DNA of 8,552 nt from Dehalococcoidia bacterium (GTDB taxonomy: Bacteria; Chloroflexota; Dehalococcoidia; UBA3495): NCBI GenBank assembly GCA_002730485.1, contig PCAH01000136.1:1-8552 (forward strand), given 5' to 3'. Below, piece after piece: positions 1 through 8,552 of this stretch. A program made the position numbers and the translations under genes. The notes beneath the pieces were generated by a model. That model did not search any database. It was not told the origin of the DNA and saw nothing but the letters and a program-made list of their open reading frames with translations. Numbering within the stretch: the first letter of the stretch is position 1; the number at the start of each line of letters is the position of its first letter.

Positions 1-621
1 CAGCTCCAACACCGTGACTTCGCCGCCGTAGTGGGCGGGCACTTCCAGGTCGAAGGCTGCCGTGTTGCCGCTCTGTAGGAAGACGATGATGTCATTCTTG
101 ACCTTATTACCGTACTCAACCATCTCAGCCGCGGTATAGACATCCTTCAGGCGCTCATCAGAGGCCCGCATGTCGTCCTGGCTCATGCTGCCCACCTTGT
201 GGCTCAAGTAGGCCACCTCCGGGAAGGACATGATGTGGAGAACGGTCTTCCGGCCCGTCCAGGGACGCCATGGCACGTCCATGTCCAGTTGCTCCTGGGA
301 GAACTGGGGAGTGGCACGGCAGGCGGCGCTCAGGATCTTGTCATATTTATCGGCCAGCCATTCGGTCTTGCCCGACAGGTCGACCTTCACGTCTAGTTTG
401 AATGCTGGAATCAGCTTCTTGGGGAAGTAGCCGATGATGACTTCCGTGTCGTCGATGATGGTCACAGGCAGGGCTTTGATACCCCGGCTGCGCAGGTCTT
501 CCATAGCCTTTTGGTCTTCCAAAACGTTGTGGTGCTCATACTGAACACCGTTGGACTTCAGGAATTCCTCCAAAGTCCGACAGCTGAATCAACCAGGCTG
601 TGTGTAAACTTGGACGTCCAT
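1..621 (-). CDS. Glutaredoxin-like selenoprotein (UxxC) with C-terminal DinB-like domain, partial
   Basis: Reading from ATG at 621-619 gives 207 codons open to the left edge except one TGA, codon 11 (591-589). Residues 1-70 are a thioredoxin-fold glutaredoxin domain: strand DVQVYTQPG, then U11-F12-S13-C14 where the family has CxxC, then helix RTLEEFLKSNGV, a second strand, and the cis-Pro loop ALPVTII (P52). The TGA sits exactly at the nucleophilic Cys, while the resolving Cys14 and the whole downstream fold are intact, which points to selenocysteine. GGAGG (627-631) lies 5 nt before the ATG, so the start upstream of the TGA is well supported. Residues ~85-207 are helical; GRKTVLHIMSFPEVAYL (H129, E135) resembles the first metal-binding helix of DinB/YfiT-like proteins. 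The expected role is a thiol/selenol redox enzyme in the cytoplasm; the partner is unknown. The 3' end is missing. Alternatives are a sequencing error or pseudogene, judged less likely. Confidence 0.85.
553..578 (-). promoter_or_regulatory. Predicted bacterial SECIS element
   Basis: On the mRNA strand the hairpin begins 10 nt after the TGA. The six outer base pairs GGACUU/AAGUCC are perfect. Above them a U (572) opposite UG separates a 3-bp mini-helix GGA/UCC (569-571 with 561-563), closed by the loop GGAAU (564-568). An alternative fold extends the stem to 9 bp through two G-U pairs, with loop AGGAAUUC. Both place G in the first two loop positions and put the loop about 19-20 nt after the UGA. 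This matches the general bacterial SECIS pattern as I recall it (short stem, unpaired U below a mini-helix, early loop G, loop roughly 16-37 nt after UGA). The hairpin also encodes residues 15-24, so coding and RNA structure overlap. It was folded by hand only. Confidence 0.7.
589..591 (-). other. In-frame TGA, predicted selenocysteine codon
   Basis: This is codon 11 of the glutaredoxin-like gene. It replaces the first Cys of a CxxC motif (TGA TTC AGC TGT, read as U-F-S-C). TGA acts as a normal stop in the neighbouring lipoprotein gene (2728-2730), where further in-frame stops follow within a few codons, and tryptophan is TGG throughout. A genome-wide change of the TGA meaning is therefore not supported. 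Confidence 0.8.
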
Positions 622-837
622 AGCATCCTCCAGTCGTAGTAACCGATGTTTCTTTAAGTAAATGGCCCAAGAAAATGGGCCTCAAAAACCAAACACATCC
701 TACCACGAGATATAGGGCAAAGTTTAGACCTAAAAGTCGCGTTCCAATCAGGCCTGGTTTCCCTTAAGAAAACGTTTATGACAGACTAGATTGATGGGTT
801 CTGATTCGATACCACCCGGCAGAGAACTGGCAGGTGC
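622..837. other. Divergent intergenic region with a short GC hairpin
   Basis: This region separates the leftward selenoprotein gene from the rightward lipoprotein gene and must hold both promoters, but I see no convincing -35/-10 pair. It contains a perfect 6-bp inverted repeat GGCCCA/TGGGCC at 664-669 and 676-681, with a 6-nt A-rich centre. This is an operator candidate or a hairpin in the 5' leader of the selenoprotein gene. No open frame of note is present. Confidence 0.5.
627..631 (-). promoter_or_regulatory. Ribosome binding site of the selenoprotein gene
   Basis: GGAGG on the minus strand lies 5 nt upstream of the ATG at 621-619. It matters because it fixes translation initiation upstream of the TGA rather than at a later start such as the ATG at codon 40 or the TTG at codon 17, neither of which would retain the redox motif. 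Confidence 0.75.
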
Positions 838-2730
838 TTGTTGGTGATATCAGACTGCTTACGCGGAAAGCTGACTTCAACGATATTCGCTGTGGCCGCG
901 CTCCTACTGGCCCTTGTCGCCTGTACCCAAAGTGACCCGAATCTAGGACCATCCTCCGACGGGACGCCGTTTTACACGGTGGCGTCGGAGTCGCCACCCC
1001 CCAATTCCACCCCGATACCTACGCCGGTCGTTCCACTTAGAGAGACAGGAGTACCCTCACCCACCGCCGTCGCAATACCCGTCCCGGTTCCAACGGTCGT
1101 GCCCACGGCTACTCCCTTACCGCCAACCATAACACCGGTGCCAACGCCTGAGCCGCCGCCAACCGCAGCCGCAACTCCCAGGCCACGACCACCTGCAGAA
1201 GACTCAACCCAACTGGACCTGGGTGGAGGCATCTTTTTGAGCGTGTCTCCGGAGAACACCGTTTCCGGGCGGGACATTTCGTTTTTCATGTCTGGATTGA
1301 ACCTCTGGGAGCCGGTGACAGTCTCGTTTCTAGACCCGGAGGGCGTGCCAGCCACCTGGATCACATCAGAAGATGTGCACCAGGTGAACACCGATGACGT
1401 CAGAGTAACATCTCAGACTCTATACCCAAACCCGGCCGGTGAGATCAGCTGGGAGCGTTACGCGGTCCAAGACGCGACCGGCCCCTGGACCATGGACATC
1501 GGCCTCTCTAATAGCGTGTTCCGGACTACCTACACCCTCAGCGACGTCAGGTTAGGCGATGTTGAGAAGGTGTTGTTGGGCACGTTGTTGACGAGACGTG
1601 AGGCTGACGATTTCGTAATCTACTACTCTGACCTTATACCCACGGCCCTGGTGGCTGATCTCCAACAACACCTGATCGATGCCGCTCTGCTCCTCGACAG
1701 ACAGATCCAGACCGAGACAAAGCAGATCCCCGATATCTACCTGCTGGGCAACCGGGACATCATGGATAAAGTAAGTACCTTTACCGGAATCAATCTGGGT
1801 TTTGAAAACGGGTACTACACGAATTTTGGTGAACGGCCAGGCATCTTCATGAGGACCGACCTGCTGGCGACAGAGGTACGACGCCTCCTCACCCATGAGT
1901 ATGTCCACCACATATTTGAGGGTCTGTCAGGCGTGCGAAACACGCCTGCCTGGCTGACTGAAGGACTCGCCGAATATTACGAATTCTACGTCGCCGAGTC
2001 TGGACCGAGACCCCAAGCATCAGAGGTTCGAGTTTACGCCTCAGCCGATCGGGCACGGGACGCTGCTCAAGCAGGCACACTTTACCCCCTGGCAGACCTG
2101 GACAGCCAGGCAGACTGGAACTCCCGGGGCGAAGGCGTCTCCCTTCAGTACGCCCAGGCCTACATGGCCGTTAGATTCCTGAACGAGACCTATGGGCCGC
2201 TTTCCGGCAAGGACCTGGTGTTGGAGATAGCCGCAGGAGCTGACATATCCGAGGCCTTGGTGACCGTGACCGGACTGGACTTGACGGTGTTTGAATTGCA
2301 ATTCAACCGCTGGCTAACGCGGTGGGAAGACCCGGAGCGACAGAGCATCATCGACTACATAGCTGCCTTGGATGTCATCCTCAACGAAGAGACCGCCAAT
2401 TCAAATCTCAGGGCACAGAACCTCGGCGCGACCATGACTTACCAGGAAGCGATCAGCAGCCGCACCTTCCTGGTCCAATCAACCGAATCACTGATCGAAG
2501 ACCTGCTAAACCTCTCCCCGCCTGCCAGGGCCGTAGACCTGCACCAGGAAGCGATCGACCACTTTGGGCGGGTGCTAGTCTGGTTATCGTTGGAACTTCA
2601 GGCTGCCAAAGCCCAGGACAACGGCCCGTTGATCGCCGCCAACGACATGATCCCAGAGATCAACGCCCGCGATTTCAGCCTCAAGCGGAACGTTTCGAAC
2701 CTGGAATTCGTTTTCAACCTCTCCAATTGA
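838..2730 (+). CDS. Secreted lipoprotein with peptidase MA-like (gluzincin) metalloprotease domain
   Basis: A predicted zinc peptidase anchored outside the cytoplasmic membrane. The N-terminus has basic residues, a hydrophobic core (FAVAALLLALVAC) and a lipobox LVAC with Cys29 as lipidation site. Residues ~53-120 are a Pro/Thr/Val-rich spacer, as in many Chloroflexota exported proteins. Residues ~125-235 look like a beta-rich domain. Residues ~250-490 hold the peptidase: LLTHEYVHHIF gives HExxH (H353, E354, H357), and WLTEGLAEYYE 18 residues on supplies the third ligand, probably E375. This spacing and the W-L-x-E-G-x-A-x-Y pattern fit the peptidase MA family. The last ~130 residues are helical without a recognised domain. 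Possible starts are TTG 838, TTG 841 and GTG 844. The nearest purine-rich stretch (829-835) fits GTG 844 slightly better, and in-frame stops at 787 and 802 rule out earlier ones. The substrate is unknown. Confidence 0.85.
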   Translation: MLVISDCLRGKLTSTIFAVAALLLALVACTQSDPNLGPSSDGTPFYTVASESPPPNSTPIPTPVVPLRETGVPSPTAVAIPVPVPTVVPTATPLPPTITPVPTPEPPPTAAATPRPRPPAEDSTQLDLGGGIFLSVSPENTVSGRDISFFMSGLNLWEPVTVSFLDPEGVPATWITSEDVHQVNTDDVRVTSQTLYPNPAGEISWERYAVQDATGPWTMDIGLSNSVFRTTYTLSDVRLGDVEKVLLGTLLTRREADDFVIYYSDLIPTALVADLQQHLIDAALLLDRQIQTETKQIPDIYLLGNRDIMDKVSTFTGINLGFENGYYTNFGERPGIFMRTDLLATEVRRLLTHEYVHHIFEGLSGVRNTPAWLTEGLAEYYEFYVAESGPRPQASEVRVYASADRARDAAQAGTLYPLADLDSQADWNSRGEGVSLQYAQAYMAVRFLNETYGPLSGKDLVLEIAAGADISEALVTVTGLDLTVFELQFNRWLTRWEDPERQSIIDYIAALDVILNEETANSNLRAQNLGATMTYQEAISSRTFLVQSTESLIEDLLNLSPPARAVDLHQEAIDHFGRVLVWLSLELQAAKAQDNGPLIAANDMIPEINARDFSLKRNVSNLEFVFNLSN

Positions 2731-2913
2731 TCCCCTAGTTAAACCCCGTCTACCGCTTAAGACGCAGAGCGTATGCCACCGCCGGTCTGATATGCGATAA
2801 TTCCGTCTGCCTATAACGGCACCTATCCGAACACGAGTCAAGTCCATGTGAAGTCATACCTCTTGATTCACCGGTGGGTATGACTCGTTCCAACAGACAA
2901 TAGAGGAGTAGAT
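2731..2913. other. Intergenic region upstream of the monooxygenase operon
   Basis: It separates the lipoprotein stop from the monooxygenase start and should hold the operon promoter. TATAAT-like words occur (GATAAT near 2795, TATAAC near 2812) but neither has a good -35 at proper spacing. No T-tract terminator for the lipoprotein gene is visible. Confidence 0.4.
2852..2885. repeat. Perfect 9-bp inverted repeat in the operon leader
   Basis: AGTCATACC (2852-2860) and GGTATGACT (2877-2885) are exact reverse complements separated by 16 nt, and the interval ends in the palindrome CACCGGTG (2869-2876). The right arm ends 28 nt before the monooxygenase ATG and leaves the ribosome binding site (2902-2908) free. 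It could be a dimeric repressor operator or a leader hairpin. No T-run follows, so it is not a classical terminator. Confidence 0.6.
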
Positions 2914-3954
2914 ATGAGATTCGGTAGCTTCGTTTTTTCGATCAGCACCGACCCCAACGCCGACCTGCAGATGATTGGCCAGACCCTGCGTGAGATAGAA
3001 CTTGCCGAAGAGGTGGGGTTCGACGCCATCTGGCTGACGGAACACCATTTTGACGGCGCAGTTGCCTATGCTGACCCGGTTGTCTTCGGCGCTGCTGTGG
3101 CCGCCAGGACCAAGCGTGTGCAAATCGGCTTCGCCGTGGTTGAGATGGCCTTGCACCATCCTGTCCGACTGGCGGTGCAAACATCACTGTTGGACAACCT
3201 GAGCAACGGAAGGCTCATCATGGGCACCGGCAGGGGCTCCGCTTACAACGAGTACGAATACATCGGTTTCGGCACCACCCTGGAGATGGGCAGGGAGATG
3301 CTGGATGAATCTGAAGAGTTGCTCATCAAAGCCTGGACTGGGACCAACGTGGTGCACAAAGGCAAATTCTGGGACCTGTCCTTTCCTGAGCTACGACCCC
3401 GTCCCGTTCAGAAGCCCCACCCACCGATCGTCCGCGCTTGTATCTCTGAAGAATCCATGGTCGCGATGGGACATGCCGGCAGACCCGTACTGATCGGAGT
3501 CCAGACCATCGACACCCTTCGGCACCGATTTGTCCGCTACCAGGAAGGGCTGGAAGCATCAGGGCTTAACGAAAAACAGATTGAAGATGTCTTAGACCAG
3601 ACCTGGGCACAGCGGGCCCTGTTCGTATGTGACAGCGACGATGAGGGCTTGGAGATTGCCGAAGCGGGACTTTCCAACTTCAAGGCGCATCTCTTTGACG
3701 CCAGGGTGAAGTTCAACCCCGGCGGCGCCCAAACTCCTGAACCAGGCACGCCACCGCCGGACAGCGAGGTCGTGGAGCACGCATTCCTAGCCGGTACGCC
3801 AGCCACAGTGGCCGGAAAGTTGGAGGAACTGCGGGACATCGGAGTACGTAACGTCTTACTCAATCCCAACATCGGCCAGATCGCGCCCGATAAAGTGGAA
3901 AAATCCCTGCGGATGTTCGGCGAGAGCGTGATGCCAAAGTTTAGAGATAATTAA
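2914..3954 (+). CDS. LLM-class (luciferase-like) flavin-dependent monooxygenase
   Basis: A cytoplasmic TIM-barrel oxidoreductase of the bacterial luciferase family, which uses reduced FMN or F420. The family oxygenates small organic substrates, in some members with C-S or C-N bond cleavage. The 346-residue length is typical. Family signs in order: first strand MRFGSFVFS, helix ending EEVGFDAIWLTEHHF (E43-H44-H45), strand RVQIGFAVVEMALHHPVRLA (68-87), and LSNGRLIMGTGRGS (96-109), which matches the conserved G-R-x-x-x-G-x-G-x-G phosphate-binding region. The C-terminus FLAGTPATVAGKLEEL is the usual helix of this family. AGAGGAG (2902-2908) sits 5 nt before ATG 2914. It heads a three-gene unit; the SDR start follows the stop by one base. 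Cofactor (FMN or F420) and substrate cannot be fixed from sequence. Such enzymes are strongly expanded in SAR202 Chloroflexota. Confidence 0.92.
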   Translation: MRFGSFVFSISTDPNADLQMIGQTLREIELAEEVGFDAIWLTEHHFDGAVAYADPVVFGAAVAARTKRVQIGFAVVEMALHHPVRLAVQTSLLDNLSNGRLIMGTGRGSAYNEYEYIGFGTTLEMGREMLDESEELLIKAWTGTNVVHKGKFWDLSFPELRPRPVQKPHPPIVRACISEESMVAMGHAGRPVLIGVQTIDTLRHRFVRYQEGLEASGLNEKQIEDVLDQTWAQRALFVCDSDDEGLEIAEAGLSNFKAHLFDARVKFNPGGAQTPEPGTPPPDSEVVEHAFLAGTPATVAGKLEELRDIGVRNVLLNPNIGQIAPDKVEKSLRMFGESVMPKFRDN

Positions 3955-3955
3955 C

Positions 3956-4726
3956 ATGCCCGATCAGAACCCCTTCGACCTCAAGGGCAAGGTCGCCGTG
4001 GTCACCGGCGGCAACGGCGGTCTGGGCTTGGGCATCGCCCTTGGTCTGGCCGGGGCCGGTGCCAACATAGTGGTTGCCGCCCGCAGCGTGGAAAAGACAG
4101 CCCAGGCGCTGGAGGACATCCGCGCCCTGGGGGTGGAGGCCCACGGAATCACGGTGGATGTAACCAAAGAACCTGCAATCCAACGGATGGTCACTAGCAC
4201 CATCGACCATATGAGACGACTGGACATACTGGTCAACAACTCGGGCATCGCCGTGCGTGCCCAACCCCAGGATTTAAGCGCAGCCCAGTGGGACTCGGTC
4301 ATAGATGTGAATCTGCGGGCGGCTTTTCTGGCCTCCAAAGAAGCCTACCCGCACATGGTCAAGAACGGCGGCGGCAAGGTAATCAACATCGGTTCCATGT
4401 ATTCGATCTTTGGCAGCGATTGGGGTTCGCCCTACGCAGCCAGCAAGGGCGGCTTGGTGCAATTGACCAGGAGCCTGGCCGTGGCCTGGGCCAAGGACAA
4501 CGTCCAGGTGAACGCCATCCTGCCCGGCTGGTTCGTCACAGACTTGACCCGCGGTATTGAAGAGGGCGACCCGGCCCGACACGACAACATCAGCCGCCGC
4601 ATCCCCACGGAACGCTGGGGCGACCCGTCCGAGTTGGGCGGGGCGGCAGTCTTCCTGGCCAGCAACGCCTCCAATTACGTAACCGGCTCCACATTGACCG
4701 TGGACGGAGGCTACTCGGCAACCTAG
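3956..4726 (+). CDS. Short-chain dehydrogenase/reductase (classical SDR)
   Basis: An NAD(P)-dependent alcohol/carbonyl oxidoreductase, 256 residues, a normal length for a classical SDR. All signatures are present: the Rossmann motif TGGNGGLG (17-24), NNSG (94-97, replacing the usual NNAG), and the catalytic tetrad N119, S147 (GSMYS), Y160 and K164 (YAASK). The adenine-side strand ends VVAARS, where an Arg often favours NADP(H). The C-terminal GSTLTVDGGYSAT is typical of the 3-oxoacyl-ACP reductase/glucose dehydrogenase-like group, but similarity to FabG does not establish that role here. ATG 3956 follows the monooxygenase stop by one base, with only a weak AGAGA upstream, so translational coupling is likely. 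It probably oxidises or reduces a product made by the preceding monooxygenase (inference from position). Confidence 0.93.
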   Translation: MPDQNPFDLKGKVAVVTGGNGGLGLGIALGLAGAGANIVVAARSVEKTAQALEDIRALGVEAHGITVDVTKEPAIQRMVTSTIDHMRRLDILVNNSGIAVRAQPQDLSAAQWDSVIDVNLRAAFLASKEAYPHMVKNGGGKVINIGSMYSIFGSDWGSPYAASKGGLVQLTRSLAVAWAKDNVQVNAILPGWFVTDLTRGIEEGDPARHDNISRRIPTERWGDPSELGGAAVFLASNASNYVTGSTLTVDGGYSAT

Positions 4727-4731
4727 AGGAG
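4726..4731 (+). promoter_or_regulatory. Ribosome binding site deciding the sulfurtransferase start
   Basis: GAGGAG overlaps the last base of the SDR stop codon and also covers the first base of the possible GTG start at 4731, so it cannot serve that GTG. Its 8-nt spacing to ATG 4740 is good, which supports ATG 4740 as the initiation codon. Confidence 0.65.
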
Positions 4732-5609
4732 TGACCAAGATGGCCTTCAAGTACCCGCATTTGTTGGTGGAAACCGACTGGCTAGTAGAACACTTGGAAG
4801 ACAAAGACATCCGCGTCTTGGACTGTACCGCCTTCAACATGCCAGATGGCAGTGGCGGTATCCGCGCCGAGAGCGGACGTGAGTCCTGGGAAACTGAACA
4901 CATCCCCGGCTCAGGCCACGCCGACTTGGTCAATGACCTCTCCGACAAGAGCGCTGCTTTCCGGTACATGCTACCGCCGGTGGAACAGTTCGCCAAAGCC
5001 ATGTCCGGCTATGGGGTGGGCGCAAATACCCGTGTCGTGCTGTACGATTCGACCTCTGGTTCTTGGGCCACACGAATCTGGTGGATGCTCAGAGCCTTCG
5101 GCTTCGACGACGCCTATGTGCTGAACGGTGGCCTGCACAAATGGAAACTGGAAAACCGGCCCCTGAGCACCAGCCCGTCAACCTACCCGCCAGCCATCTT
5201 CCACGCCAGGCTGAGAACTGGACTGATGGCCGACCGTGCTGAAGTCTTGGCTGCGATTTCAGATGGCGCAACCTGTGTCATAAACGCGCTCAGCAAAGAC
5301 CAGCACCTGGGCACTGGCGGTGCCAACTACGGGCGGCCTGGACGCATCGCCGACACCGTAAACGTGCCAGCCGGGGACCTAACAGACCCTGAGACGCACG
5401 CCTACCTATCACCGGAACAACTGGCCGAGCGGTTTGCTGGAGTCGGGGCAGATACTGCATCCAGAGTGATTGCCTATTGCGGCGGTGGCATCGCTGCCAG
5501 CAACGACGCTTTTATACTGACACTGCTCGGCCACGAGAACGTGGCGGTGTACGACGCGTCAATGTCTGAGTGGGCAGCCGACCCATCCCTGCCGATGCAG
5601 ACTGGCTAG
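4731..5609 (+). CDS. Two-domain rhodanese-like sulfurtransferase
   Basis: Tandem rhodanese domains of the thiosulfate/3-mercaptopyruvate sulfurtransferase type, moving sulfane sulfur through a cysteine persulfide. The open frame begins at GTG 4731, but GAGGAG (4726-4731) lies 8 nt before ATG 4740, so ATG 4740 (289 residues) is the better start; numbering here uses it. The N-terminal domain (to ~135) carries RVLDCTAFNM and the domain end DAYVLNGGLHKWK. The C-terminal domain has the active loop CGGGIAAS (C247) and ends LLGHENVAVYDASMSEW. CGGG resembles the CG[ST]G of mercaptopyruvate enzymes more than the CRxG of thiosulfate enzymes. However, the usual D-A-R of the second domain reads N182-A-L184, and the usual RF.G reads QHLG, so the Arg residues that bind the mercaptopyruvate carboxylate appear absent and the substrate may differ. 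It is the last gene of the operon, 4-13 nt after the SDR. Confidence 0.9.
   Translation: MTKMAFKYPHLLVETDWLVEHLEDKDIRVLDCTAFNMPDGSGGIRAESGRESWETEHIPGSGHADLVNDLSDKSAAFRYMLPPVEQFAKAMSGYGVGANTRVVLYDSTSGSWATRIWWMLRAFGFDDAYVLNGGLHKWKLENRPLSTSPSTYPPAIFHARLRTGLMADRAEVLAAISDGATCVINALSKDQHLGTGGANYGRPGRIADTVNVPAGDLTDPETHAYLSPEQLAERFAGVGADTASRVIAYCGGGIAASNDAFILTLLGHENVAVYDASMSEWAADPSLPMQTG
5606..5609. other. Overlapping convergent stop codons in one CTAG
   Basis: The TAG of the sulfurtransferase (5607-5609, plus) and the TAG of the AlkC-like gene (5608-5606, minus) share the palindrome CTAG. There is no intergenic DNA and therefore no separate terminator between the converging genes. Confidence 0.9.
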
Positions 5610-6724
5610 TCACAAACAAACTCGGCTTCCGCCATGGTATGCCCGTTCACGACGACTTCAACCCGGTGGCTGCCCGGGTAATGCTTGCGGGTGCTGATGG
5701 TCTTGAACGACTGCTTTCTCGCAATAACCACCGAGTCCCCTGCACCCACGTCCCTGATTGACCACTTGAACGTCTTGGGCGCTTGCTTGCCGTTGGACTT
5801 CATATAGTGAATTCGGTAGTCGATCATCAGTTTTTGCGCTCGCTCTGAGACAAACTTAAACACAAATTCCAGATCGCCTTCCCTCGGTACCCATCCATCT
5901 TCCAATTCAAGCTCGGCATCAGTGATTCCGGGTGCCAGGTAGCCCAGCAATCCAAGGGCGTCTTCATTTCCCTGTTTCAACAGCGTCCGCAAGGCGTGTC
6001 GGGTCAGCCATTGCCTTTCTTCACTGTCGTCTTGACTCCACTCTTGCAAAGTACTGACGACGATTGCCGGGTTATCTTTGGAGATGTCGTTCAAGTTGTT
6101 GGCAACCGAGCGGCGAACATACAATTCAGGGTCATCTTTTTGCATCTCCAATAGTTCCAGGACTGGGCCGGGGTCGTTTTTGAAGCTGTGGAGGGGAGCC
6201 GCCAACGGCAATCTGGGCCGCGTGCCCTCGGAAACCAGCCGCCTCACGTGCACATTCGGGTCGGCCACCCATACCCGGAGCAGCGCCAGGGACTCCTCCG
6301 GGTATCTTTCAATGAAAGTCCGGATCGCGCCCTCAGAGGAGAACCTCTTGGTCATCTCTTTGAGGGCTTCCATGCCCAGGTTGAAGTGGTCTATTCCCTC
6401 TTGGGCGATGTACTCGGTCTCGGGAACGACGATGAACCCGTCCCAGGGCGTTTCACCTGGCTGATCATCGAGTTCCGGCTCCAGCGAATCCATGAGTTTC
6501 TGAGCCGAACGCTCAAAGTCATTGGGCAGATGATTCTTGAGGGCATTTCGGATCAAACTTGAGCGTTCGCCGAAGCCAAGGCCCTCCAGGTCGGCCTCGA
6601 TGGCCCTGCAGAAGCCCTGCTCGTCGAATTCGGCATAAACGCCTTTGATCCGCTGGGCGAGGTTGCTTACAATCCGCATGTTGTAAACGTCTCGAAGTTG
6701 GTTTTCTGCGCTGAGTCCGGCCAT
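5606..6724 (-). CDS. AlkC-like DNA alkylation repair glycosylase (HEAT-like repeats plus Ig-like domain)
   Basis: It resembles the AlkC/AlkD superfamily of HEAT-like-repeat DNA glycosylases, which excise alkylated bases such as 3-methyladenine without base flipping. The 372-residue protein has a helical N-terminal half. The conserved repeats are VRRLVSEGTRPRLP (160-173) and YVRRSVANNLNDISKDNP (202-219), a pairing I associate with AlkC. Acidic and aromatic positions near W230, W239 and R242 (EWSQDD, RQWLTRHALRTLL) continue the DNA-binding scaffold. Residues ~280-372 are beta-strand-rich (DLEFVFKFVS, HRVEVVVNGH, EAEFVCD), consistent with the C-terminal Ig-like domain of some AlkC proteins. GGAGA (6729-6733) precedes ATG 6724-6722 by 4 nt. 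It lies 30 nt downstream of the phosphotriesterase-family gene on the same strand, probably co-transcribed. A non-catalytic HEAT protein cannot be excluded. Confidence 0.85.
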   Translation of the reverse strand: MAGLSAENQLRDVYNMRIVSNLAQRIKGVYAEFDEQGFCRAIEADLEGLGFGERSSLIRNALKNHLPNDFERSAQKLMDSLEPELDDQPGETPWDGFIVVPETEYIAQEGIDHFNLGMEALKEMTKRFSSEGAIRTFIERYPEESLALLRVWVADPNVHVRRLVSEGTRPRLPLAAPLHSFKNDPGPVLELLEMQKDDPELYVRRSVANNLNDISKDNPAIVVSTLQEWSQDDSEERQWLTRHALRTLLKQGNEDALGLLGYLAPGITDAELELEDGWVPREGDLEFVFKFVSERAQKLMIDYRIHYMKSNGKQAPKTFKWSIRDVGAGDSVVIARKQSFKTISTRKHYPGSHRVEVVVNGHTMAEAEFVCD

Positions 6725-6754
6725 TAAGTCTCCATTCTCCCCTTAGCGCTCTGG

Positions 6755-7705
6755 CTACCCTTCAAAGAACCGGCGGGGGTTTTCAAGCATGATCTGGTTG
6801 ATGGTTGCATCGGAAACGCCCAGTTCCTTCAGGCGCGGAAGCACGTTACGGGTGATGAAGTTGTAGCCATCAGGGTTGTACTTGAACCGTTCTTCCTGGA
6901 CTGCCGCCCCGTGTCGCGCCTTGGGCACCGAATGGTCGTGGGAGAGCATGATACGGTCGGCCCTACCAGCGTCGATAAGCTGTTTGGTCAGTTCGGTCCG
7001 CTGTTCCCAGGCTGGGGTGCCCGGACGGCGTCCGCCAGGGAACCGGTCCAACCCCAACCAGACCCCTTGATCAAGCAGACCAAGCAGGTATCCCATTTCG
7101 GTGTCGTCGTTACTGTGACCGATGTAGACACGGTTCATGTCCACACCCTCTTCCTTGAGGATTCGCACCTGTTCTTCGCCGATTCGCTCCGGAGACCAGG
7201 TATGGGTGGAGATGGGAGTGTTGGTGCGCACGGAAGCCTGTCCCGCCGCCCGCAGCACGATCTCCTGGGCTGCGGTGATCCCACCTTCGTCGCTGGCCAC
7301 TTTGATGATGCCGGCCTTAACCCCGGTGCCTTCGATGCCTTCCTCGATTTCACGCACATACAAGTCGGCAATAACCTCGGGCGCCAGGTCGATGAACGGA
7401 CGTGGCACAGCCAGGTGGTTGCCGGTTGCGGCGACTATCTGCACGCCGGTGGTCTGGGAGACCTCTTTCATCATCTCAATGTCTCGGCCAAGGTCGATGG
7501 TGCTGACATCGATGATGGTGCGTAATCCCTCATCGTAGGCTTCTTTCAGTGTTTCGTTGGCCTGCTCGATGATCCCCGGCCGGTCGATGAGCTCTGGAAA
7601 GGTCCTGAGTATGCCGGCGGCGTTGGTGGCCAGGTGTTCGTGACTAAGGGTGAAGCCCATGTTCCCAGTTTCAATGGGCCCCAATACTGAATTTATCGTA
7701 GTCAT
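6755..7705 (-). CDS. Phosphotriesterase-family metal-dependent hydrolase
   Basis: A binuclear-metal amidohydrolase-fold enzyme of the phosphotriesterase/PTE-like lactonase group, 316 residues (family usually 300-350). Every metal ligand is visible: H22 and H24 (LSHEHL), K135, the carbamylated bridging lysine (IIKVAS), H168 (STHT), H197 (YIGHSND) and D257 (LSHDHS). The N-terminal SVLGPIETGNMGFTLSHEH is diagnostic of the family. Loop 8, which controls specificity, carries Y/F-rich FKYNPDGYNFI. Known members hydrolyse lactones or organophosphates; lactonase or another ester/amide hydrolase activity is the safer guess, since true phosphotriesterases are rare. GGGGAGA (7711-7717) lies 5 nt before ATG 7705-7703. 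It is divergent from the GMC oxidoreductase and upstream of the AlkC-like gene. It could hydrolyse a lactone made by the neighbouring oxidoreductases (inference). Confidence 0.92.
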   Translation of the reverse strand: MTTINSVLGPIETGNMGFTLSHEHLATNAAGILRTFPELIDRPGIIEQANETLKEAYDEGLRTIIDVSTIDLGRDIEMMKEVSQTTGVQIVAATGNHLAVPRPFIDLAPEVIADLYVREIEEGIEGTGVKAGIIKVASDEGGITAAQEIVLRAAGQASVRTNTPISTHTWSPERIGEEQVRILKEEGVDMNRVYIGHSNDDTEMGYLLGLLDQGVWLGLDRFPGGRRPGTPAWEQRTELTKQLIDAGRADRIMLSHDHSVPKARHGAAVQEERFKYNPDGYNFITRNVLPRLKELGVSDATINQIMLENPRRFFEG

Positions 7706-7816
7706 GATCGTCTCCCCTCAAGTTTTCTGCCCAGCTATTCTAATACCAAAGCCTTGAGTCAGACACTGCGAAAAGACATTTTGGGCGTTGAATAGGATTC
7801 AGGTGTAAGTCCAGGC

Positions 7817-7822
7817 TATAAT
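7817..7822 (+). promoter_or_regulatory. Candidate -10 box of the GMC oxidoreductase gene
   Basis: A perfect TATAAT lies 34 nt upstream of ATG 7857. The position 17 nt upstream reads AGGATT, a poor -35 match; TTGAAT (7788-7793) is a better -35 word but its 23-nt spacing is too long. The promoter may depend on an activator or be weak. Confidence 0.45.
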
Positions 7823-7834
7823 TGCGGCGCAATT
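7820..7834. repeat. Small inverted repeat overlapping the -10 box, operator candidate
   Basis: AATTGC-GGC-GCAATT is a perfect 6-bp inverted repeat with a 3-nt centre. It covers the end of the TATAAT box and the expected transcription start near 7829. A protein bound here would block the GMC promoter. Confidence 0.45.
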
Positions 7835-7856
7835 TTCCTTTAGGCACGAGGTACCC

Positions 7857-8552
7857 ATGAAATATGATGTGATCATCGTTGGCGCCGGTTCCGCCGGCTG
7901 CGTACTGGCAAATCGGCTCTCTGAAGATCCAAATCGGTCGGTGCTGCTGCTGGACGCTGGGCCCGACTACCCAGACCTGGCCACAATGCCGGACGATGTC
8001 AAACACGACTTGAACCAGCGGGCGTCCGAGTCTGATGCACCCCACAATTGGTCGTTCACCGGCACAACCGACCCGGCTGGCACCAGGAATGCAGCCGTGG
8101 CTCGAGGCAAGGTCTTTGGCGGCACCAGCGCCATCAACCACCAAATCTTCCTGCGCGGATTACCTCTGGACTTCGATCACTGGGCCGAATTGGGGAATGA
8201 TGAGTGGTCCTACCTGAAAGTGCTGCCCTATTTCCGCAAGTTGGAAACTGACCTGGACATCTCGGGCGACTTCCATGGTACCGACGGCCCAATACTGCTC
8301 AACCGTCACAAGATGGAAGACCTATTGCCTCTACAACGGGCTTTCCGCGCTGCCTGCCTTTCCGCCGGTTACCCGGACGACCCTGATATGAACAGCCCCG
8401 ACGGCGGGGGCATCGGCGCGATTCCGCTGAACTATGTGGACGGCATCAGGGTGAGCACGGCCATCGGCTATCTCACACCGGTACGAAACCGACTCAACCT
8501 GACCATCAAGCCCAACGTCACCGCCCACAAGGTCATCTTTGAGGGCAAACGG
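7857..8552 (+). CDS. GMC-family FAD-dependent oxidoreductase, N-terminal part
   Basis: A flavoprotein of the glucose-methanol-choline oxidoreductase family, which oxidises alcohols to aldehydes or ketones. 232 codons are present, open to the right edge; full members run about 500-560 residues, so somewhat under half is seen. MKYDVIIVGAGSAGCVLANRL contains the FAD-binding GxGxxG (G9-A-G11-S-A-G14), and LLLDAG gives the acidic strand end that binds the FAD ribose. ARGKVFGGTSAINHQIFLRG matches the first GMC signature (RGK..GG.S..N....RG). Then come DFDHWAELGNDEWSYLKVLPYFRKLE and HGTDGPI, both typical of choline dehydrogenase-like proteins. GAGG (7848-7851) lies 5 nt before ATG 7857. The catalytic His is in the missing C-terminal part, so activity and substrate cannot be judged. 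It is divergent from the hydrolase with a shared regulatory region. Confidence 0.93.
   Translation, partial: MKYDVIIVGAGSAGCVLANRLSEDPNRSVLLLDAGPDYPDLATMPDDVKHDLNQRASESDAPHNWSFTGTTDPAGTRNAAVARGKVFGGTSAINHQIFLRGLPLDFDHWAELGNDEWSYLKVLPYFRKLETDLDISGDFHGTDGPILLNRHKMEDLLPLQRAFRAACLSAGYPDDPDMNSPDGGGIGAIPLNYVDGIRVSTAIGYLTPVRNRLNLTIKPNVTAHKVIFEGKR

What the first reader, a model, noticed from the sequence alone, without database searches (positions are those of the whole stretch)
586..621. Probable selenoprotein: TGA at the redox position of a glutaredoxin-like protein
The minus-strand gene has TGA at codon 11, exactly at the first Cys of the CxxC motif, giving U-F-S-C. The resolving Cys, the cis-Pro loop and a further ~190 codons in the same frame are intact, and a strong ribosome binding site (627-631) starts translation before the TGA. 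It is established that selenocysteine commonly replaces the attacking Cys in thioredoxin-fold proteins. Standard gene calling would start after the TGA or drop the gene.
Basis: partly seen in the sequence, partly recalled or inferred. Interest (0 to 1): 0.9.

Follow-up and report, generated by a model that had tools for sequence, protein, structure and literature searches.

The report
Selenocysteine glutaredoxin fused to DinB domain
A bacterium related to the ocean group SAR202 carries a gene whose apparent early stop codon very probably inserts the rare amino acid selenocysteine into a redox domain that is joined to a second, probably metal-binding domain, a protein that sequence catalogues mostly list without its active end.

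Summary
In detail: codon 11 of the minus-strand gene is TGA (589-591) in G-U-F-S-C, with GGAGG at 627-631 and an open frame to the window edge. Selenocysteine is well supported. (1) TGA stands at this codon in the window and in all 26 relatives read from genome DNA; none has Cys. (2) Selection keeps the protein on both sides (pN/pS 0.10 and 0.11). (3) The hairpin behind it meets the published bacterial SECIS rules (loop GGAAU 20 nt after UGA, -17.1 kcal/mol, 0 of 150 synonymous recodings as stable). (4) 7 of 9 relatives' genomes hold SelA, SelB, SelD and a tRNA-Sec. I found no such fusion in a 119-entry selenoprotein inventory. The chemistry is inferred: probably metal-assisted thiol transfer coupled to selenol redox cycling. 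Against: three database homologues have Arg or Trp at position 11, and the window's own genome is not held.

The parts
1..621 (-). coding sequence with TGA read as Sec; first 207 of about 253 residues, 3' end outside the window
589..591 (-). in-frame TGA, codon 11, predicted selenocysteine (U11)
580..582 (-). C14, resolving Cys of the UxxC motif
   Evidence: invariant in 14 of 14 aligned
445..615 (-). glutaredoxin domain PF00462, residues 3-59
   Evidence: 39.9 bits, cut-off 22.9; coordinates
466..468 (-). P52, position of the cis-Pro of the thioredoxin fold (role recalled)
   Evidence: invariant in 14 of 14
547..584 (-). SECIS-type hairpin behind the UGA; apical loop GGAAU at 564-568
627..631 (-). 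GGAGG ribosome binding site
1..297 (-). first part of the DinB/S-transferase-like domain (from residue 109); the rest lies outside the window
   Evidence: boundary from full-length L001, PF12867 residues 109-222, 37.3 bits, cut-off 24.8; coordinates. The window piece alone gives no DinB match at E 0.001
235..237 (-). H129, first of three conserved His; H214 and H218 fall outside the window

Best explanation
The gene encodes a selenoprotein of about 253 residues in a SAR202-like bacterium (Chloroflexota, Dehalococcoidia). UGA-11 is read as selenocysteine, directed by the hairpin just behind it. The product has an N-terminal glutaredoxin domain with a U11-x-x-C14 active site and a C-terminal DinB/S-transferase-like helical domain whose H129, H214 and H218 probably hold a divalent metal. 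Shown by sequence: conservation of TGA, selection on both sides, the hairpin, Sec machinery in relatives, domain make-up, invariant residues. Inferred: Sec insertion itself, metal binding, activity. Mechanism I think most likely (about 0.35 on its own): the DinB domain activates a small thiol on its metal and transfers it to an electrophile, or binds a thiolated substrate, and the Sec-Cys pair reduces the mixed bond that results, so that conjugation and thiol recycling sit in one chain. The small thiol is unknown.
For: TGA in the window and 26 of 26 relatives read from DNA (9 close; 17 distant), each in front of xxC. pN/pS 0.100 for codons 2-10 and 0.109 for 12-16 among eight close genes. Window hairpin: 20-nt spacing, 5-nt loop GGAAU, -17.1 kcal/mol, 0 of 150 synonymous recodings as stable, within the bSECIS limits quoted in PMC13188914 (passages). 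In 18 distant TGA genes Leu21 is CTT in 18 of 18 (6.6% of 302 Leu codons elsewhere in these genes) and Lys18 AAA in 18 of 18 (36% of 77), which keeps a hairpin. SelB 7 of 9, SelA 7 of 9, SelD 8 of 9 with one TGA each, tRNA-Sec (tca) 7 of 9 relatives' genomes. Invariant G10 U11 C14 P52 H129 H214 H218 in 14 of 14 fused proteins. Model of L001 (pLDDT 86.2, pTM 0.81) matches Grx chains over about 1-77 and DinB chains over about 81-240.
Against: P0105 has Arg and P0106 and P0121 have Trp at position 11; no Cys homologue found. G002 has the gene but no SelA, SelB or tRNA-Sec over the marks; G004 lacks SelD too; G388 lacks SelA and SelB. For 15 of 18 distant genes the hairpin is not in the best 5% of synonymous recodings, and in L076-L079 its energy misses -7.5 kcal/mol. 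Covariation is slight, one pair with both sides changed in each alignment. For the mechanism: no MshC or BshC over cut-off and no GCS2 in 10 genomes, so no thiol partner is known; DinB_2 is over Pfam's cut-off in only 4 of 10 fused proteins scanned.
Confidence: 0.9

Rival explanations
1. TGA is an ordinary stop: codons 1-10 are a leader and the protein is a DinB-family protein starting at a later start codon (TTG at 573-571 here), as gene callers have it.
For: 151 of 155 database homologues are annotated from residue 17 or later; several are named 'DinB family protein'.
Against: Codons 2-10 and 12-16 are kept as protein, the GGAGG stands before the first ATG in 10 of 10 loci, the start at residue 17 would lose the first strand and the redox pair of a domain that is otherwise conserved, and the hairpin and Sec machinery would be unexplained.
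Confidence: 0.05
2. UGA is read as Trp or another ordinary residue, by a changed code or suppression.
For: P0106 and P0121 show Trp at position 11 and P0105 Arg.
Against: Genomes of relatives hold SelA, SelB, SelD and tRNA-Sec; SelD itself has TGA in the CAG-U-AAK context in 7 of 7 loci printed; the window's own frame 838-2730 ends in TGA. Trp and Arg codons lie one base from TGA, and Trp can also be a table-4 gene call.
Confidence: 0.03
3. Sequencing error or decayed gene: the codon is really TGC or TGT, or the gene is dead.
For: One TGA in an otherwise open frame.
Against: The same TGA in 26 relatives from other assemblies, with purifying selection on both sides.
Confidence: 0.02
4. Alternative function of the same selenoprotein: the Grx domain is a plain electron donor to another enzyme and the DinB domain only binds a metal or a partner, without thiol transfer.
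For: No gene for a known small thiol (MshC, BshC, GCS2) in 10 genomes; a Sec glutaredoxin that serves a methionine sulfoxide reductase is cited in PMC13188914 (reference title seen).
Against: The three His are invariant in 14 of 14 fused proteins down to 23% identity; in B. subtilis transferases the same kind of triad goes with metal-dependent activity (PMC5815605, passages).
Confidence: 0.3

Closest known systems
Selenoprotein glutaredoxin (Grx, PF00462, UxxC)
   Different: Here fused to a C-terminal DinB-like domain; the inventory lists Grx without such a fusion.
DinB/YfiT or S-transferase-like (STL) superfamily: bacillithiol and mycothiol transferases
   Different: Fused to a Sec glutaredoxin; far below the curated marks of NF009807 (15.4 of 160) and NF047843 (13.8 of 170) for L001; no BshC and no MshC over cut-off in 10 genomes.
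UXX-star (seleno)proteins and the HUGP/GUXX-star fusion
   Same: Grx-like Sec proteins, one of them a fusion.
   Different: Scores below their marks (NF041212 39.6 of 66, NF041211 26.2 of 100, NF045501 24.7 of 325 for the window); a second Cys is present here; the partner domain differs.
Grx and Grx-like selenoprotein sequences of the Sargasso Sea and GOS surveys (PMC1088965, PMC2398784)
   Same: Marine UxxC Grx-type sequences; some may be fragments of this gene.
   Different: The passages read name no DinB fusion; the fusions named involve Prx, Prx-like, UGSC and SelD. Their sequence supplements could not be opened.

Membership tests
Bacterial selenoprotein | in-frame UGA at a catalytic Cys/Sec position, conserved in relatives | tested here: met
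   window and 26 of 26 relatives; position aligns with the first Cys of Grx
Bacterial selenoprotein | SECIS hairpin behind the UGA (3-9 nt loop with G in the first two places, 16-37 nt spacing, energy at most -7.5 kcal/mol) | tested here: met
   met for the window (rules); 24 of 28 genes meet the energy limit, L076-L079 do not
Bacterial selenoprotein | Sec machinery in the same genome | tested here: inconclusive
   window genome not held; complete set in 7 of 9 relatives' genomes
Bacterial selenoprotein | Sec present in the protein | not testable with these tools
   needs mass spectrometry or selenium labelling
Glutaredoxin (PF00462) | score over the family mark, redox pair, conserved Pro | tested here: met
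   39.9 bits, cut-off 22.9; 10 of 10 relatives over it; U11, C14, P52 invariant
UXX-star (NF041212) | score over the curated mark | tested here: not met
   39.6 bits, cut-off 66
DinB / STL superfamily | DinB_2 profile match | tested here: met
   over cut-off in 4 of 10 fused relatives scanned (L001, L008, L048, L052), under it in 2, none in 4; PDB profile match 3dka E 1.4e-7. Not testable on the window piece alone
DinB / STL superfamily | three conserved His | tested here: met
   H129, H214, H218 in 14 of 14; the window shows H129 only
Bacillithiol transferase (NF009807) or mycothiol transferase (NF047843) | score over the curated mark | tested here: not met
   15.4 of 160 and 13.8 of 170 bits, L001
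DinB / STL superfamily | metal-dependent thiol transfer | not testable with these tools
   needs purified protein

The most novel reading that the evidence does not exclude
A new selenoenzyme class in Dehalococcoidia and perhaps other Chloroflexota: a metal-dependent S-transferase with a built-in selenol glutaredoxin, which depends on Sec (no Cys form seen) and serves an unidentified small thiol in bacteria in which the genes sought for glutathione, mycothiol and bacillithiol were not found.
Probability: 0.3. Interest if true: 0.75.

Novelty: new variant of a known kind. Interest (0 to 1): 0.55.

Why it matters
SAR202 bacteria are abundant in the dark ocean (recalled), and two literature searches joining SAR202 or Chloroflexota with selenocysteine terms listed no account of their selenoproteins. 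The domain pairing is absent from a 119-entry inventory, and the active site is cut off in 151 of 155 database homologues. The pairing suggests a link between metal-site thiol chemistry and selenol redox chemistry that one recombinant protein could test.

Tried and rejected
Plain stop, Trp reading and sequencing error were weighed and are given as rivals. Hypothetical protein GOS_C (marine UxxC selenoprotein, PMC2398784) was considered as the same family: its model NF045500 is Omp28_seleno and matched 0 of 9 genomes, but that search rang in no control either, so it excludes little. Rfam at gathering threshold found nothing in the window. One scan of viral contigs found no relative. Phylum-search matches without a stop that reached beyond the Grx part (G661) or began after the redox place (G649), and a DinB-side match (G331), were fetched: G661 and G649 hold a different Grx-like protein that has TGA before xxC, and G331 a DinB-like protein without Grx; G654, which also begins after the redox place, was not fetched. 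Searches for small-thiol genes named no partner (MshC over cut-off 0 of 10, all 10 with sub-mark matches; BshC 0 of 10; GCS2 0 of 10); ergothioneine genes were not searched. No conserved neighbour explains the function: a GMC oxidoreductase follows in the same direction in 7 of 9 close loci (L004 ends too soon to tell), while the distant loci scanned have other neighbours. The best Foldseek row by E-value is an insect glutathione transferase with TM 0.30, a weak whole-length match, not followed.

Rows dropped before counts: three chance TGA frames (L008 minus, L050 minus, a second L052 hit) and two repeats (L046 = L003, L080 = L057) were left out of the 28. L055 runs off its contig after the Grx part and is counted in the 28 but not in the 27 fused genes. 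L050 is split by a frame change in its DinB part. L004 and L009 are near-identical and both counted. L076-L079 and L081-L083 count as fused by match coverage only. Alignment A2 holds 14 of the 27 fused proteins, A3 9 of the 10 close genes, A4 13 of the 18 distant ones.

Full report
What is in the window. The minus-strand gene starts at ATG 621-619 behind GGAGG (627-631). Codon 11 is TGA (589-591) and the frame is open to the window edge. Residues 3-59 match glutaredoxin PF00462 with 39.9 bits (cut-off 22.9). Relatives are 253 aa long; in L001 residues 109-222 match DinB_2, PF12867, with 37.3 bits (cut-off 24.8). The window holds the first 207 residues only.

Source. The window's genome is not held. 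Its nearest relatives are metagenome-assembled genomes titled Dehalococcoidia, Chloroflexi or SAR202. Other window genes also match the DNA around six of the nine relatives (L001, L002, L003, L005, L006, L009), at up to 94% protein identity. L004 is in a bin titled Mesorhizobium but its protein is nearly identical to that of L009, so it is probably mis-binned.

Is TGA conserved? All 9 genome-contig loci have TGA at codon 11 in G-U-F-S-C. A search of 393 genomes of the class of G003 found full-length matches at 14 places in 10 genomes, and one split gene in G336; each of these main matches has one TGA. Leaving out G003, which is L003, the other 13 places and G336 were read, and TGA stands before xxC in all 14. 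A search of 400 genomes of the phylum gave 5 full-length matches, 3 of them new, all with TGA. With the window this makes 27 fused genes, 27 with TGA and none with Cys, at identities down to 23%. Both searches saw samples of larger groups. Among the 155 database homologues listed (the best 120 of 930, 53 of 53, the best 120 of 1007; many in common), 151 start at reference residue 17 or later; one (P0122) starts near residue 10 with other letters; three carry a residue at 11: Arg (P0105), Trp (P0106) and Trp (P0121). Arg and Trp codons lie one base from TGA, and Trp could come from a table-4 gene call. Their DNA was out of reach, so these three stay unexplained and could be real losses of Sec.

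Is the part before TGA translated with the part after it? Among eight close genes (window, L001-L007) pN/pS is 0.100 for codons 2-10, 0.109 for 12-16, 0.035 for 17-30 and 0.167 for 31-207; 1038 of 2109 fourfold comparisons differ. Both sides are kept as protein.

The hairpin. PMC13188914 gives the bacterial SECIS rules (passages read). The window has a loop GGAAU 20 nt after UGA, a long interrupted stem and -17.1 kcal/mol, and none of 150 synonymous recodings is as stable. Over the 28 TGA genes, 24 reach -7.5 kcal/mol; L076, L077, L078 and L079 do not. In the close group 8 of 10 genes lie within the best 8 of 150 recodings (L007 and L008 do not); in the distant group only 3 of 18 do. The search takes the best permitted hairpin, not always the same one, and the recodings draw on the gene's own codons. 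A plainer sign in the distant group is codon choice: Leu21 is CTT in 18 of 18 and Lys18 AAA in 18 of 18, while CTT is 6.6% of 302 Leu codons and AAA 36% of 77 Lys codons further on in the same genes, whose G+C runs from 35 to 73%. In most these codons make CGAAAG-AGTTT-CTTTCG. The genes are related, so no probability is given. RNAalifold finds one pair with both sides changed in each alignment. Another TGA-bearing Grx-like gene (L109, L110) has GTGAGGGAGTTTCTCTCAC near the same place, with changes on both arms and the same AGTTT.

The machinery. Over their marks are SelB in 7 of 9 relatives' genomes, SelA in 7 of 9 and SelD in 8 of 9, each with one in-frame TGA (that of G009 in two pieces). 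In 7 of the 8 SelD loci scanned the TGA was seen in CAG-U-AAK; the script did not print the eighth, L033. ARAGORN names tRNA-Sec with anticodon tca in 7 of 9 loci; the Rfam hit of G002 is tRNA-Ser and that of G004, under the mark, tRNA-Gly. G002 lacks SelA, SelB and tRNA-Sec; G004 lacks SelD too. Of 13 further genomes with the fused gene, SelB is over its mark in 12 and SelA in 10; of 20 without a match. G388 has the gene but neither. Completeness of these genomes is not given.

What is known. I read the whole of Table 1 of PMC13188914, said there to hold 119 families or subfamilies: it has Grx, Grx-like and UXX-star entries but no DinB. 'DinB', 'Chloroflex' and 'PF12867' do not occur in its main text. 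Searches of the library for selenoprotein with DinB as whole words (0 papers), with glutaredoxin and DinB (1), with glutaredoxin and Chloroflexi (3), with Dehalococcoidia (7), with marine, metagenom and glutaredoxin (13), SAR202 with selenocysteine (2) and selenocysteine with Chloroflexota and selenoproteins (1) listed no title or abstract about this fusion; the library lacks most subscription papers. In PMC5649159 the one passage with selenocysteine says that SelA and SelB co-occur in most sponge-symbiont bins of various phyla. The Sargasso and GOS papers (passages read) count marine Grx and Grx-like UxxC sequences that may include pieces of this gene.

Verdict. New are the fusion, its occurrence in 11 of 393 genomes sampled from the class, four of them with two copies, and the lack of any Cys form in what was searched. 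I call it a new variant of a known kind.

Noticed in passing
L109:202-204 and L110:330-332: A second kind of Grx-like gene in two Chloroflexota genomes (G661, G649) has TGA in T-U-x-E-C-C and a similar hairpin behind it.
   Followed up: partly
L028-L035: SelD of eight relatives' genomes has an in-frame TGA itself, in CAG-U-AAK where printed (7 of 8), with a hairpin behind it.
   Followed up: partly
L048/L077, L049/L076, L051/L078, L054/L079: Four genomes (G356, G394, G282, G294) hold two copies of the fused gene, both with TGA.
   Followed up: no
L004: A contig in a bin titled Mesorhizobium carries a gene nearly identical to that of the Dehalococcoidia locus L009; that genome has no SelA or SelD match, so the bin is probably mixed.
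   Followed up: no
L001, L002, L003, L005, L006, L007, L009, from about 5844-5892: A GMC oxidoreductase gene follows the fused gene in the same direction in 7 of 9 close loci.
   Followed up: no
L055: A Grx domain with TGA and the same hairpin that runs off its contig after the Grx part; whether it is fused cannot be told.
   Followed up: no
838-8552: Other window genes: peptidase-MA-like protein 838-2730, luciferase-like monooxygenase 2914-3954, short-chain dehydrogenase 3956-4726, rhodanese 4731-5609, DNA-alkylation-repair-like protein 5606-6724 (minus), phosphotriesterase family 6755-7705 (minus), GMC oxidoreductase from 7857.
   Followed up: no
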